Assembly: GCA_902805665.1 (NCBI GenBank)
Contig: CADCTB010000019.1
Span: 1 to 33,670 of the forward strand
From: an uncultured Acidimicrobiales bacterium
GTDB lineage: Bacteria; Actinomycetota; Acidimicrobiia; Acidimicrobiales; AC-14
Reading direction: 5' to 3'
Length of the DNA stretch: 33,670 nucleotides
Positions 1 to 4,923 of the stretch are shown piece after piece; position 1 is the stretch's first letter; each line of letters starts with the position of its first letter. The notes below the pieces were generated by a model. That model was not told the origin of the DNA. It saw only the letters and a list, made by a program, of their open reading frames with translations, and did not search any database. Position numbers and translations under genes: made by a program.

Positions 1-281
1 AACATGAGCTTGGCCCGCCGGAACATCTCGAAGGTGCCGCTTGCGTCGACCGTGCCCCAGCTCAGGTAGACGAACCGTTCACCGCGCCGGCCCTGCACGT
101 AGGGGCCCCGCAGATCGCCGTCGGCCGGGGTTCTCTTGACCTCGAAGTCCCACACCGCTTCTCCGGCGTCGCCCGGGAACAGGTCGACGACGTCCGTCCG
201 GCGCTGCACGCCGACGTGGATGTTCTCGTACGGTCCGCACCTCAGGCCCGGCAGGTTCACGCCGACGATCCGCACATCCAC
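1..281 (-). CDS. DUF5990 family protein (3' end cut by window edge)
   Basis: Reverse-strand translation VDVRIVGVNLPGLRCGPYENIHVGVQRRTDVVDLFPGDAGEAVWDFEVKRTPADGDLRGPYVQGRRGERFVYLSWGTVDASGTFEMFRRAKLM matches my recollection of the DUF5990 pattern (NIHVGVQRR...GPYVQGRRGERFVYLSWG). GTG start at 281. The supplied ORF track does not list this frame. Confidence 0.75.
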   Translation of the reverse strand, partial: MDVRIVGVNLPGLRCGPYENIHVGVQRRTDVVDLFPGDAGEAVWDFEVKRTPADGDLRGPYVQGRRGERFVYLSWGTVDASGTFEMFRRAKLM

Positions 282-295
282 CGCACCGACGGTAG

Positions 296-610
296 TTTCC
301 GCAGCTCGCCGAGACCGTTTTCCTCACCGATTCCGGTCTGGAGACCGACCTGATCTTCCGTCACGGGTACGACCTGCCCGACGTCGCCGCCTTCGTGCTG
401 CTCGACGACGAAGCCGGCACGGAGACATTGCGCCGGTACTACCGGGAGCACGCCATTATCGCCCGGGACGCCGGCGTGGGCATCGTCCCGGAGTCGCCGA
501 CGTGGCGGGCCAACCCGGAACTGGGGCGGGCGGCTGGGTTATCCGCCGGAGCGGCTGGCCGACGTCAACCGGCGGGCGATCGCCCTCCTCGTCGACCTCC
601 GCGTGCGGTC
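296..610 (+). pseudogene. Homocysteine S-methyltransferase, N-terminal remnant (no start codon, internal frameshift)
   Basis: Frame reads PQLAETVFLTDSGLETDLIFRHGYDLPDVAAFVLLDDEAGTETLRRYYREHAIIARDAGVGIVPESPTWRANPELG, then shifts frame near 527 to RLGYPPERLADVNRRAIALLVDLR. In-frame TAG at 293-295 and no start codon upstream. Confidence 0.75.
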
Positions 611-649
611 GACCAGGCCACCGACCGATACCCGGCAGGGATGATGTGG

Positions 650-855
650 GGGAAGGACCGAGCACCATCCACCGTCTTGGAGGCGGTGCTCACTACGGTC
701 AGGAGTTCTGGTTCTTCGGTCTGACCTGAAAGCTGGGTTGACGCAGAAGTTGTCTTCGTAAGGAACCGTCGACCGAGGTCCAGAGAACCCAACCGGCCCG
801 CACCGGTCGGGCGGCGTGAAGCGGGCGGCTGTTGGAGCAGTCGACCGCCTCAGTG
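650..855 (+). ncRNA. Candidate IS110 bridge RNA in the left end (boundaries approximate)
   Basis: Stem 660-666/685-691 (GAGCACC/GGTGCTC), loop-closing stem 734-739/786-791 (TGGGTT/AACCCA), hairpins 796-800/808-812 and 824-831/838-849, all in the non-coding region upstream of the transposase. Confidence 0.35.
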
Positions 856-912
856 ACCGCCGTCCCGGCTTGCTGCGTGCCACCCCTTGACCAATGAGAA
901 GGAAGGGATGGC

Positions 913-1955
913 ATGACCATCGTAGAAGCCCGGCGCGCCGTGACCGGCGGCGTGGACACCCACTTGGACCTCAACGTCGCCGCGGCGCTCGACGACATCG
1001 GCGGACTGCTCGGTGTGGAGGAGTTCGCCACCGACGCCGGCGGTGACCGGCGCCTGCTGGACTGGCTGCAGTCTTTCGGCACAGTGACGCGCGTCGGTGT
1101 CGAAGGCACCGGCTCCTATGGCGTCGGCGTGGCCAGAGCGCTGCGAGCGGCCGACATCGCCGTGGTCGAGGTCGACCGGCCCAACCGCCTGGTGCGGCGC
1201 CGTCAGGGCAAGTCGGATCCTCTCGATGCGGTCGAAGCGGCCCGAGCCGCCCTGTCAGGGCGAGCGTCTGGGAAAGCCAAGACCCGGGACGGCAACGTGG
1301 AGGCGATCCGGGCGCTGACGGTGGCCCGGCGCAGCGGCCGGGCCACCAGGACCAAGACCCTCAACCAGCTCCGCCACCTCGGATACTGCGCTCCCGAGCC
1401 GCTGCGGCAACGATTTCAGGGCCTCTCGGCGGCGGCATTGGCGCTCGAAGCGGCCGGCCTGCGGCCCCGGGCCGATGCTTGCCCGGTCATTTTCGCCACC
1501 AAGACGGCGATGCGCACCCTGGGCCGGCGGGTGGCCGTGCTGGACCAGGAGAAGGTCGACCTCGACGAGCTCCTGGGCAAGCTGGTGACCGAGACCGCTC
1601 CCGAGCTGCTCGCCCTCCACGGCGTCGGCATCGTCACCGCCGCAGCCCTGCTGGTGGCGGCGGGAGACAACCCCGAACGGCTCCGCAGCGAGGCGGCCTG
1701 GGCCCACCTGTGCGGGGTGGCGCCGCTGGAGAGGCCTCCTCGGGCAAGGTCGTGCGCCGCCGGCTGAACCGAGGCGGTGACCGCCAGGCCAACGCCGCCC
1801 TGTGGCGGATCGCCTTGGTCCGTATGCGCTCGGACCCGCGCACGCGCACCTACGTGGAGCGCCGGGTCGTGGAGGGCCGCTCCAAGCCCGAGATCATCCG
1901 CATGCTCAAGCGCTACATCGCCCGCGAGGTGTACCGCCACCTGCCTCGCGGCTGA
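913..1955 (+). pseudogene. IS110-family transposase (DEDD N-terminal domain + Transposase_20 C-terminal domain), frameshifted near 1730
   Basis: Frame 1 (913..1767): GVDTHLD, VEGTGSYG, GKSDPLDA, LHGVGIVTAAALL, CGVAPLE. Frame 3 continues ASSGKVVRRRLNRGGDRQANAALWRIALVRM...KRYIAREVYRHLPRG to TGA at 1955. Confidence 0.85.
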
Positions 1956-1964
1956 AATTGCTCT

Positions 1965-2039
1965 GAGCGGCGGGTCTGGCCCCATAACCGGCTGACGCCC
2001 GACGGGTTGTCCTCAGTTCGATCTGCCGACCCGCCGCTC
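1965..2039 (+). repeat. 12-bp perfect inverted repeat just downstream of the transposase
   Basis: GAGCGGCGGGTC (1965-1976) / GACCCGCCGCTC (2028-2039), 51-nt intervening sequence, starting 10 nt after the transposase stop. Confidence 0.75.
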
Positions 2040-2159
2040 GAGCACCACCGACATTCGTTCGACGAGCAACGCCTTGGCCTAATAAGAGCCTGCCCTCGCC
2101 TCTCGGAGTGGCCCATCCCTGTCCTGCCCGGCACCTCGTCGAACACCGGAACTGGCCCC

Positions 2160-2165
2160 TTGACA
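2160..2165 (+). promoter_or_regulatory. Consensus -35 hexamer TTGACA pointing outward at the inferred IS110 right end
   Basis: TTGACA read at 2160-2165; inferred right boundary near 2177. Confidence 0.4.
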
Positions 2166-2177
2166 ACGATAAGAGCA

Positions 2178-2395
2178 TCGTACTACAGGGTGAGCTGCGC
2201 CCACCCCAGCCACTTCGCCTACGTGCTGGAGGATGGTGGCGACTGGACGAGCCGCTTGCGTGGCGTGCGCGCCCATGCCTCGAGGCGTAGCCACGCCGAG
2301 CTCGACGAGGCCGAGGACCTCGACGACGGCGATCCGCGGCAACTGGCCCGTGAGCACCGGCAAGTCCGCAAGGCCTCGCCACCGCCTGCATCGTC
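2178..2395 (+). pseudogene. Homocysteine S-methyltransferase, C-terminal remnant
   Basis: SYYRVSCAHPSHFAYVLEDGGDWTSRLRGVRAHASRRSHAELDEAEDLDDGDPRQLAREHRQVRK resembles the C-terminal NCAHPTHF...IRGVRANASRxSHAELDEAEELDxGDP region; the following GGCCGT zinc motif region is missing. Confidence 0.7.
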
Positions 2396-2413
2396 TGAGT
2401 GGGCCGCGACCAG

Positions 2414-2456
2414 GTGGGCACACTTTTCCAGTCCAGGACCGTAAAAGTGTGCCCAC
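2414..2456. repeat. 14-bp perfect inverted repeat (possible IS end or MITE relic)
   Basis: GTGGGCACACTTTT (2414-2427) - 15 nt - AAAAGTGTGCCCAC (2443-2456). Confidence 0.85.
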
Positions 2457-2551
2457 TTCTCCGGCGGGCCGAGCTACTTCAACCAACCGGTGCCGGCCTC
2501 GGCGTGATGGGGACCGTTTCTCGGATCTGGGGCGCGGGTAGCGACGGGAAC

Positions 2552-3211
2552 ATGCGAAGAACGCTGCGAAACAACGGTCTATCGACGGTGATGTTCGGGC
2601 TGTTCGCCTTGTTCCTTCTCGGCATGAGCCTCGCCGGTCAGCGCGAGTACAACGAGGAGCAGACCGAGCACGGCGAAGAGACCGTGAGCTACGTCGGGTA
2701 CCTGCAGACCGGGCACTTCGTGGAGGCGGTGTTCGAGAACTGGGAGAGCGAGTTCCTGCAGATGGGGGGCTTCGTGCTCCTCACCGTGTTCCTTTTCCAG
2801 AAGGGGTCGCCCGAGTCGAAGAAGCTGGAGGGTGAGGCGGTCGACGAGGACCCTCGCGACAGTGATGGCGAGGACGCACCGTGGCTGGTGCGGACCGGCG
2901 GCGTGAAGCTGTGGCTGTACGAGCGCTCGCTGACGATCGCGTTGTTCACGCTCTTCTTCGTCTCGTTCGCGCTGCATGCGGCCGCCGGGGCGCGCGAATA
3001 CAGCGCCGAGCAGGTCGCCCACGGCGGGAGCGAGATAGGGATGCTCGCCTACATCGCCACGTCACGGTTCTGGTTCGAGTCGCTCCAGAACTGGCAGAGC
3101 GAGTTCCTGGCCGTGGGCGCGCTGGTGGTGCTGTCGGTGTACCTACGCCAGCGAGGGTCGCCGGAGTCCAAGCCGGTGGCTGCGGCCCACGCCGAGACGG
3201 GGACCGAGTAG
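2552..3211 (+). CDS. DUF6766-like membrane protein with internal duplication
   Basis: MRRTLRNNGLSTVMFGLFALFLLGMSLAGQREYNEEQ...; two similar halves each with REY..EQ..HG, W.SEFL, RGSPESK-type motifs. Confidence 0.7.
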   Translation: MRRTLRNNGLSTVMFGLFALFLLGMSLAGQREYNEEQTEHGEETVSYVGYLQTGHFVEAVFENWESEFLQMGGFVLLTVFLFQKGSPESKKLEGEAVDEDPRDSDGEDAPWLVRTGGVKLWLYERSLTIALFTLFFVSFALHAAAGAREYSAEQVAHGGSEIGMLAYIATSRFWFESLQNWQSEFLAVGALVVLSVYLRQRGSPESKPVAAAHAETGTE

Positions 3212-3219
3212 AACCGGAC

Positions 3220-3546
3220 TTACAGGAACTCGGCGAGGTCCTCGAGCAGCTGTCCCTTGCCCTTGGCGCCGACGATGCGCTTCTTGGCCACACCGTCCTG
3301 GAACACCATCAGGGTGGGGATGCTCATGATGTTGAACCGCTGGGCGACGGCGGGGGCGTCGTCGACGTTGAGCTTGGCCAGGCGGACCTTGCCCTCGTTC
3401 TCGTTGGCGATCTGCTCGAGCACCGGGGCGACCATGCGGCACGGGCCACACCACTCGGCCCAGAAATCGACGATCAGGGGGAGCTCGGACGCACCGATCT
3501 CCTCGTCGAAGGTCTCGTTGGTCAGCTCCAGAAGATTGCCTGCCAT
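3220..3546 (-). CDS. trxA: Thioredoxin
   Basis: VDFWAEWCGPCRMVAPVLEQIA active site and IMSIPTLMVFQDG. Confidence 0.97.
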   Translation of the reverse strand: MAGNLLELTNETFDEEIGASELPLIVDFWAEWCGPCRMVAPVLEQIANENEGKVRLAKLNVDDAPAVAQRFNIMSIPTLMVFQDGVAKKRIVGAKGKGQLLEDLAEFL

Positions 3547-3616
3547 CAGCCTCTTGCCTCCTCAGGGTCGAACGCGTGAACGCCGGACGGGCCGGCAGAA
3601 TTCCCGACGGTGTAGG

Positions 3617-4609
3617 TCACCAATCGGTGGGGGTGGGTGATATGTCGGAGTCGTGGGGCTGGCTCTCCAGCCAGCGCTCGGCGTCGATGGCCGCCATGCA
3701 CCCGGAGCCGGCCGCGGTGACGGCCTGACGGTAGGTGCGGTCCTGGACGTCGCCGGCGGCGAAGACACCCTCGACGTTGAGGTGGGTGCCCCGGTGGGTG
3801 AGGAGGTAGGACGCGTCATCCATGGCCAGCTGGCCCACGAAGAGGTTGGTGTTGGGGTGGTGGCCGATGGCCACGAACATCCCCGTGATCGGCAGCTCCG
3901 ACCGCTCGCCGGTCTTGACGTTCTTGAGGGTGACGCCGGTCAGGGAGTCGTCACCGTGCAGCTCGACGGGCACCGAGTCCCACACGAACTCGATCTTCTC
4001 GTTCTTGAACGAGCGCTCCTGCATGATCTTCGACGCCCGCAACGAGTCCCGCCGGTGGATGACGTAGACCTTCTCGGCGAACTTGGTGAGGAAGTTGGCC
4101 TCCTCCAGGGCGGAGTCGCCGCCGCCGACGACGGCGATGGTCTGGCCCCGGAAGAAGAACCCGTCGCAGGTGGCGCAGGTCGACACCCCGTGGCCGATCA
4201 GCCGGCGCTCGTTGTCGAGGCCGAGCATCTTGGCCCGGGCGCCGGTGGCCACGATCACGGCCCGGCCCTGGTACTCGGCGTCGCCCACCCACACCCGGCC
4301 CAGGCGCTGGGTGAAGTCCACCTTGTCGATCTTGTCGGTCACGAACTCGGCGCCGAAGCGGGCGGCCTGCGCCCGCATGGCCCCCATCAGCTCCGGGCCC
4401 TGGATCCCATCGACGAAACCGGGGTAGTTCTCCACGTCGGTGGTCAGCATCAGCTGGCCGCCGGGCTGGTCACCGGTGGAGGAGAGGGCCCCCTCGAACA
4501 CCAGCGGCCGCAGATTCGCCCGGGCGGTGTATATCGCCGCGGTGAGCCCCGCCGGGCCCGACCCGATGATGATCACATCCCGGATCTCGCTCACGGAAGT
4601 CTCTGTCAC
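3617..4609 (-). CDS. trxB: Thioredoxin-disulfide reductase
   Basis: IIIGSGPAGLTAAIYTARA, STCATCDGFFFRGQ, GGGDSALEEA, FAAGDVQD. GTG start at 4609 overlaps the upstream TGA. Confidence 0.95.
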   Translation of the reverse strand: MTETSVSEIRDVIIIGSGPAGLTAAIYTARANLRPLVFEGALSSTGDQPGGQLMLTTDVENYPGFVDGIQGPELMGAMRAQAARFGAEFVTDKIDKVDFTQRLGRVWVGDAEYQGRAVIVATGARAKMLGLDNERRLIGHGVSTCATCDGFFFRGQTIAVVGGGDSALEEANFLTKFAEKVYVIHRRDSLRASKIMQERSFKNEKIEFVWDSVPVELHGDDSLTGVTLKNVKTGERSELPITGMFVAIGHHPNTNLFVGQLAMDDASYLLTHRGTHLNVEGVFAAGDVQDRTYRQAVTAAGSGCMAAIDAERWLESQPHDSDISPTPTDW

Positions 4610-4923
4610 ACGTCTCCTGTCGTGGGCCCCACAGCCGGAGCCGTCTTCTTGGACCAGAGGAACAGTCCCAGCCCCAGGAATATTGCCCCGAGGAGGACGT
4701 AGGGCAGCCACACCTCACGCGGCAGCACCACGTCGAGGATGCGGATCACCGCAATGAGGGCCACGACACCGGCCATGGTGCCGACGATGACCGCGATCAA
4801 CCCGTAGACGAGGAGGCGGGCGACCTTGACCAGGCGGTCGGTGGTGTTGCTGCGGACGACCTCGATGTAGTGATCGAGCCGATCGAGCAGATCGGTGGTC
4901 CAGTCTGAGCCCTCCTGCGCCAT
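4606..4923 (-). CDS. Small two-TM membrane protein (holin-like)
   Basis: LDHYIEVVRSNTTDRLVKVARLLVYGLIAVIVGTMAGVVALIAVIRILDVVLPREVWLPYVLLGAIFLGLGLFLWSKK; overlaps trxB start by 4 nt. Confidence 0.7.
   Translation of the reverse strand: MAQEGSDWTTDLLDRLDHYIEVVRSNTTDRLVKVARLLVYGLIAVIVGTMAGVVALIAVIRILDVVLPREVWLPYVLLGAIFLGLGLFLWSKKTAPAVGPTTGDV

What the first reader, a model, noticed from the sequence alone, without database searches (positions are those of the whole stretch)
650..855. Left end of the IS110 element has bridge-RNA-like architecture
The ~300 nt non-coding region before the transposase contains, in order, a 7-bp stem (660-666/685-691, GAGCACC/GGTGCTC), a 6-bp stem closing a 46-nt loop (734-739/786-791, TGGGTT/AACCCA), and paired segments 796-800/808-812 and 824-831/838-849 (GGCGG-CTG / CAG...CCGCC). 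A 5' stem-loop followed by two larger loops in the left end matches the published IS110/IS621 bridge RNA layout (5' stem-loop, target-binding loop, donor-binding loop). The stems are seen directly; the RNA function is inference. If right, this is an uncharacterised programmable recombinase guide from a high-GC actinobacterium.
Basis: partly seen in the sequence, partly recalled or inferred. Interest (0 to 1): 0.72.

Follow-up and report, generated by a model that had tools for sequence, protein, structure and literature searches.

The report
IS110 guide RNA moved right

Summary
The window holds an IS110-family element, core to core at 636/637-2179/2180 (about 1.54 kb). The ends are fixed by an empty site in the same genome. 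Its transposase has a frameshift.

Over 25 homologues they pair in 47.7% of cells; control slides give 37-45%.

The guide RNA lies in the RIGHT end (1958-2135). It folds into the two-loop bridge RNA: 94% of cells paired, 25 of 34 pairs with compensatory changes. Across loci its loops pair, position by position, with each element's own target and donor, and with the published handshake positions. The left-end RNA of the same elements shows no consistent match.

The left-end RNA (hit 703-888) is still a diverged homologue: 27 bits, against 141 for the right end. More distant relatives keep one bridge RNA, in the left end. On the transposase tree one branch (92/84) splits the two-RNA elements off. 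Simplest history: the bridge RNA was copied into the right end, then the left copy lost its guides but kept part of its fold. Its present role, perhaps a transposase leader, is inferred.

The parts
626..635 (+). left target half (LT) CGATACCCGG in an mmuM-like (homocysteine S-methyltransferase-like) reading frame; pairs with the LTG of the right-end RNA
   Evidence: empty-site paralogue on contig C210 of the same genome, 97.3% identical over 636 + 148 bp; mmuM naming is from memory of the family, Pfam gave no hit
636..637 (+). left core dinucleotide CA
   Evidence: empty site ..CCCGG-CG-TACTAC..
638..646 (+). right donor half (RD) GGGATGATG; holds the -10-like hexamer GATGAT (640-645) of the junction promoter
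703..888 (+). left-end RNA: diverged homologue of the bridge RNA whose loops do not match target or donor
   Evidence: cmsearch with the right-end model, 27.2 bits, E 1.7e-5; guide test at chance over most positions
716..776 (+). conserved target-loop-like stem of the left-end RNA: 716-725 with 768-776
   Evidence: 95.1% of cells paired, 5 of 9 pairs with compensatory changes
795..881 (+). long-range helix 795-799 with GTGCC 877-881 (consensus GGCAC:GTGCC)
   Evidence: 96.8% of cells paired; shares 879-881 with the ribosome-site hairpin, so the two cannot both form in full
879..912 (+). hairpin GCCACCCCT / AGGGATGGC covering the ribosome-binding site of the transposase
   Evidence: 93% of cells paired over 25 loci; -19.4 kcal/mol in the window, about -10 in the left-end-only elements L002 and L003
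913..1955 (+). IS110 transposase gene (DEDD domain in the 913-1767 frame, Transposase_20 end in the 1479-1955 frame), broken by a frameshift near 1730
   Evidence: PF01548 and PF02371, NF033542 below cut-off for the N-terminal piece; CTGGAG-AG-GCCTCC against CTGGAGGCCTCC in L030
1958..2135 (+). bridge RNA in the right end
   Evidence: model R1 140.9 bits, E 1.7e-34 (the window is one of the 25 sequences the model was built from); 34 pairs, 94.0% of cells paired, 25 pairs with compensatory changes
1964..2040 (+). target-binding loop: stem 1964-1980/2025-2040, LTG ATAACCGGC 1984-1992, capping hairpin 1994-2000/2004-2011, RTG AGTTCG 2015-2020, handshake guide AT 2021-2022
2072..2131 (+). donor-binding loop: stem 2072-2078/2126-2131, LDG ATAAGAGC 2082-2089, capping hairpin 2092-2096/2107-2112, RDG CATCCCTG 2114-2121, handshake guide TC 2122-2123
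2160..2165 (+). TTGACA, -35 box that meets the -10-like box of the left end in the circular form (17-nt spacer)
   Evidence: TTGACA present in all 24 junctions tested; function inferred
2169..2178 (+). left donor half (LD) ATAAGAGC plus AT, which pairs with the handshake guide
2179..2186 (+). right core CG and right target half (RT) TACTAC
   Evidence: empty site

Best explanation
An IS110-group insertion sequence whose working bridge RNA lies in the right end, behind the transposase gene. By analogy with IS621 the recombinase would bind this RNA; its first internal loop pairs with the two strands of the genomic target around a C(A/G) core, the second with the joined right-end/left-end donor, and top strands are exchanged with the help of handshake pairs. 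The left end carries an older copy of the same RNA that has lost its guides and its donor loop but keeps the target-loop stem and leads into a hairpin over the transposase ribosome-binding site. Shown by sequence: position and fold of the right-end RNA, its pairing with target, donor and handshake positions, the homology of the left-end RNA, and the split on the transposase tree. Inferred: RNA expression, protein binding, catalysis, that the left copy now acts as a leader in cis, and the direction of the copying (left end first). This copy's transposase is frameshifted, so it is probably immobile unless the shift is an assembly error.
For: Ends and core: an empty-site paralogue in the same genome. 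Structure: (94.0% of cells paired; covariation score 0.523, shuffles 0.177, slid 0.04-0.13). Guides, per-position tests against flanks swapped between loci: LT -8..-1 each p <= 0.0042; RT2-RT5 p 0.0002-0.017; second core base p 0.0006; target-loop handshake guide with donor -2 p < 0.0002, and A:T with donor -1 in 25/25; RDG p < 0.0002 at RD2 and RD3; donor-loop handshake guide with target -1 p < 0.0002. Left end: no such signal in the two-RNA elements (8-9-mer tests), whereas the two own-genome elements with almost no right end (L002, L003) match core, RT2-RT5 and handshake from their left-end RNA. Homology: the right-end model finds L002/L003 left ends at 75-79 bits and two-RNA left ends at 27-48 bits where found. 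The more distant relatives have the hit upstream of the transposase. Tree: one change, support 92/84. Junction promoter TTGACA-N17-GAKGAT in most loci.
Against: No expression, binding or recombination data. The window's own guides are imperfect: LTG 8 of 10 against its target, one mismatch in RT2-RT5. The window belongs to the 25 sequences from which model R1 was built, so its own score is partly by construction; L018, L034, L017 and L075, not in the model, are independent. Permutation tests treat loci as exchangeable although the elements are related; this affects donor tests more than target tests. In L020, L022, L029, L041 and L048 the left-end target loop still resembles the right-end one and the target. 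7-mer tests gave the left-end RNA a weak score for LT (46 of 10,000 permutations) and 9-mer tests for RD (65 of 10,000); the LT score was not repeated at 8 or 9 bases. The empty site comes from a fragmented draft genome and may be a strain variant. The split on the tree is supported 92/84, below the starred level.
Confidence: 0.86

Rival explanations
1. One reading: the left-end RNA at 650-855 is the element's bridge RNA.
For: Left end is structured and related to bridge RNAs; in the relatives L002/L003 the left-end RNA is the bridge RNA.
Against: Stems not conserved; loops do not follow target or donor; donor-guide motifs are in the right end.
Confidence: 0.03
2. Natural split guide: left-end RNA supplies target binding, right-end RNA supplies donor binding.
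For: Left-end RNA keeps a target-loop-like stem and lost the donor loop.
Against: The right-end RNA has both loops and its target loop is the one that follows the target; left-end target loops do not.
Confidence: 0.04
3. The left-end RNA is a plain relic: a decaying former bridge RNA kept only because it carries the -10 box, leader and ribosome site.
For: Guides and donor loop lost; its target-loop sequence varies fast, 8/16 identical between L007 and L019 against 190/240 for the rest; low model scores.
Against: The target-loop stem is kept with compensatory changes, and a left end of 242-287 nt was present in every element whose left end could be delimited.
Confidence: 0.35
4. The left-end RNA is a bridge-RNA mimic or leader that the recombinase binds to control its own translation through the mutually exclusive helices 795-799/877-881 and 879-887/904-912.
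For: Both helices conserved and sharing GCC 879-881; ribosome-site hairpin stronger in two-RNA elements than in L002/L003 (a few sequences); kept target-loop stem.
Against: No binding or expression data; many unrelated genes have such hairpins; the pairs involved vary little, so covariation is weak there.
Confidence: 0.4
5. The left-end RNA guides a different reaction, for example excision, with partners not tested here.
For: Excision is unexplained even for IS621 (PMC11208158); left-end loops vary fast.
Against: No partner found at any offset tried around either end or the start codon; no clear antisense match to the right-end RNA (p 0.49 and 0.02).
Confidence: 0.1

Closest known systems
IS621 bridge RNA (IS110 group; Durrant et al. 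2024 PMC11208160, Hiraizumi et al. 2024 PMC11208158)
   Same: Two internal loops with LTG/RTG and LDG/RDG, core dinucleotide, handshake guides, junction promoter from -35 in the right end and -10 in the left end
   Different: IS621 RNA is in the left end and starts with a 5' stem-loop; here the guide RNA is behind the transposase gene, core is C(A/G) rather than CT, and a second, guide-less copy sits in the left end
IS1111-group bridge RNA / seekRNA (Siddiquee et al. 2024 PMC11187229)
   Same: Guide RNA encoded downstream of the transposase gene
   Different: Nearest relatives in the tree are left-end-only IS110 elements, not elements with downstream RNA; subterminal inverted repeats were not tested
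IS110-family elements with two long non-coding ends (26 in ISfinder, e.g. ISHvo10, ISAcp5; PMC11187229)
   Same: Long non-coding regions on both sides of the transposase gene
   Different: The section read does not say whether both ends code for related RNAs; here both do, and only the right one carries matching guides
L002 and L003, elements of the same genome
   Same: Related transposase (61-64% identical), similar LD motif (CTAGGAGC), homologous RNA
   Different: Right end only about 20 nt; bridge RNA with matching right-target guides and handshake in the left end

Membership tests
IS110 family insertion sequence | DEDD RuvC-like domain (PF01548) and Transposase_20 domain (PF02371) with the conserved serine | tested here: met
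   DEDD motifs VDTH, EGTGSY and SDPLD in the 913 frame, ASSGK serine motif at window nt 1734 in the shifted frame
IS110 family insertion sequence | scarless insertion at a core dinucleotide, no longer target duplication | tested here: met
   empty site CCCGG-CG-TACTAC against CCCGG-CA...AT-CG-TACTAC
IS110 group (as opposed to IS1111) | bridge RNA in the left end | tested here: not met
   guide-bearing RNA is in the right end; the left-end copy lacks matching guides
IS1111 group | bridge RNA in the right end | tested here: met
IS1111 group | subterminal inverted repeats of 7-17 bp | not tested
   not searched for systematically
IS1111 group | transposase belonging to the IS1111 branch | not tested
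   no IS1111 reference sequences were put on the tree; nearest relatives found are left-end-RNA IS110 elements
bridge RNA | two stem-loops with internal loops supported by covariation | tested here: met
bridge RNA | LTG/RTG pair with target, LDG/RDG with donor, across loci | tested here: met
bridge RNA | handshake guides pair with the opposite DNA | tested here: met
   donor -2 p < 0.0002, target -1 p < 0.0002
bridge RNA | 5' stem-loop before the target-binding loop | tested here: not met
   none in the right-end consensus; the target stem starts a few nt into the conserved RNA, 9 nt after the stop codon in the window
bridge RNA | expressed, and bound by the recombinase | not testable with these tools
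   needs RNA sequencing and binding assays

The most novel reading that the evidence does not exclude
A two-RNA IS110 lineage in which a duplicated bridge RNA does the guiding from the right end while the old left-end copy has become a guide-less mimic that lets the recombinase sense and limit its own synthesis.
Probability: 0.3. Interest if true: 0.75.

Novelty: new variant of a known kind. Interest (0 to 1): 0.6.

Why it matters
Durrant et al. proposed that the IS110 and IS1111 groups arose when the bridge RNA moved between the ends of an element. Here such a move can be followed inside one shallow group of transposases: left-end-only relatives, and elements with both copies of which only the right one guides. 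It also offers a new set of bridge recombinases with readable guides and handshake positions, including one in a cultured actinobacterium (Trebonia kvetii, L029, reading frame open), and a warning that locating the guide by its left-end position alone can pick the wrong RNA.

Tried and rejected
Rfam at gathering thresholds: no hit in the window. First definition of the ends (split after GAGC) put AT of GAGCAT on the target side; the empty site corrected it, and the tests were repeated. Unanchored right-target tests lost the signal because the pairing is short; the anchored test recovered it. Left-end loops were scanned against all offsets around both ends and the start codon: best z 3.3 among over a thousand tests. 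Left-end loops as antisense to the right-end RNA: p 0.49 and 0.02. Joined flanks of other loci gave no other clear interrupted gene; Pfam did not recognise the interrupted gene. The first right-end alignment had one sequence on the wrong strand, corrected. Transposase against PDB sequences: no hit.

Full report
What was claimed.

The element. The gene at 913-1955 is an IS110 transposase: PF01548 in the first frame, PF02371 split over two frames, with an extra AG near 1730 that breaks the frame (CTGGAG-AG-GCCTCC against CTGGAGGCCTCC in the closest relative L030). Homology to L030 runs from about 625 to 2180. The exact ends come from an empty site: contig C210 of the same genome carries the flanks uninterrupted, 97.3% identical over 636 and 148 bp, reading ..CGATACCCGG-CG-TACTACATGG.. 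where the window reads ..CGATACCCGG-CA-GGGATGATG.. on the left (core 636-637) and ..GATAAGAGCAT-CG-TACTACAGGG.. on the right (core 2179-2180). C210 ends inside this region and the window starts at its contig end, so the pair may be a duplication or two strain variants; as an empty site it serves either way. The interrupted frame looks like an mmuM-type methyltransferase; that naming is from memory, Pfam gave no hit.

The stems of the finding. All four exist as complementary strings, but on 25 homologous left ends they pair in 47.7% of cells, near shuffles (44.9%) and slid controls (36.6-44.9%). The first is broken in L030, the second would cross a conserved helix. The left end has other conserved helices: 716-725/768-776 and 795-799/877-881 (95.7%) and a hairpin over the ribosome-binding site (879-887/904-912, 93%). 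The last two share GCC 879-881 and cannot both form in full.

Where the guide is. In the relatives the right end holds an inner copy of the donor: a stretch like ATAAGAGC (the element's own last bases), a hairpin, and the reverse complement of the element's first bases. Aligned, the right ends fold into the two-loop bridge RNA: a target loop and a donor loop, each with a capping hairpin; 34 pairs, 94.0% of cells paired, 25 pairs with compensatory changes, covariation score 0.523 against 0.177 in shuffles.

Guide test. For every locus the target (LT, core, RT) and donor (LD, core, RD) were read off and each guide position was compared with its own partner and with partners swapped between loci. 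LTG pairs with LT at -8 to -1 (p 0.0042 or less at each). RTG pairs with RT2-RT5 (p 0.0002-0.017) and follows the second core base, C/T in the guide with G/A in the target (p 0.0006). RDG pairs with RD2-RD4 and RD6; LDG with LD, where most positions hardly vary. The two bases after the core in each loop pair with the opposite DNA: target-loop handshake with donor -2 (p < 0.0002) and -1 (A:T in 25/25), donor-loop handshake with target -1 (p < 0.0002) and -2 (p 0.03). This is the handshake described for IS621 (PMC11208158). At donor position -2 the LDG matches its own donor in only 1 of 25 loci, fewer than the swapped expectation; in IS621, cognate pairing of handshake bases blocks strand exchange, so avoidance may be of the same kind (inference).

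The left-end RNA. The same test on the left-end RNA of two-RNA elements gives chance values at nearly all positions. In the whole-RNA tests the 8-mers are not significant for LT, RT and LD; RD reaches z 2.0-2.5 at 8-9 bases and LT z 2.8 at 7 bases only. In L020, L022, L029, L041 and L048 its target loop still resembles target and right-end guide; in L004 and L028, for instance, it does not while the right-end guide does. By contrast L002 and L003, two elements of the same genome with almost no right end, match core, RT2-RT5 and both handshake positions from their left-end RNA.

History. A covariance model of the right-end RNA (R1) scores the window's right end at 140.9 bits, L002/L003 left ends at 75-79, and left ends of two-RNA elements at 27-48 where they are found. 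The window was among the sequences used to build it; L018, L034, L017 and L075 were not. In the genome R1 hits only the four IS copies. It occurs in 51 of 397 genomes of the phylum. Where both ends could be compared, the more distant relatives have it upstream of the transposase; only L075 has both. A tree of 57 transposases separates two-RNA from left-end-only elements by one branch (92/84, in 91% of bootstrap trees). The root was not tested with IS1111 sequences, so left end first is the simplest reading, not a proof.

Expression. TTGACA stands at the right end of all 24 junctions tested, 17 bases before a GAKGAT-like hexamer of the left end in most of them, as in the IS621 circle promoter. 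It would transcribe the left-end RNA first; the right-end RNA would have to come from read-through of the gene or a promoter of its own. Not tested.

What the left copy does is open. A plain relic (about 0.35) and a leader or mimic controlling translation (about 0.4) are the main readings. Siddiquee et al. (PMC11187229) list 26 ISfinder elements with two long non-coding regions, so two-sided elements as such are known; the papers read here do not describe two related RNAs of which one has lost its guides, but only open-access papers were searched.

Noticed in passing
window 1-636 and 2179-2326; contig C210 end (L057, L065): The region flanking the element is present a second time, 97% identical, on contig C210 without the element; the window's copy of the reading frame is degraded (extra base near 525), and both copies look short in the middle compared with what is remembered of the methyltransferase family.
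   Followed up: partly
window 879-912 and the same place in 25 relatives: Conserved hairpin sequestering the ribosome-binding site of the transposase, exclusive with a conserved long-range helix 795-799/877-881.
   Followed up: partly
right-end RNA, LDG position opposite donor -2: The LDG base at this position matches its own donor in only 1 of 25 loci, below the swapped expectation, as if cognate pairing were avoided.
   Followed up: no
window 1725-1740: Two-base AG insertion frameshifts the transposase of this copy; real or assembly error unknown.
   Followed up: partly
window 3220-4711, - strand: Thioredoxin and thioredoxin-reductase-like genes side by side (PF00085, PF07992).
   Followed up: no
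window 2399-3211, + strand: DUF6766 protein directly right of the element.
   Followed up: no
L010 right end: In this relative the donor loop of the right-end RNA is replaced by unrelated sequence after GATAAGAG; model score 86.6 bits.
   Followed up: no
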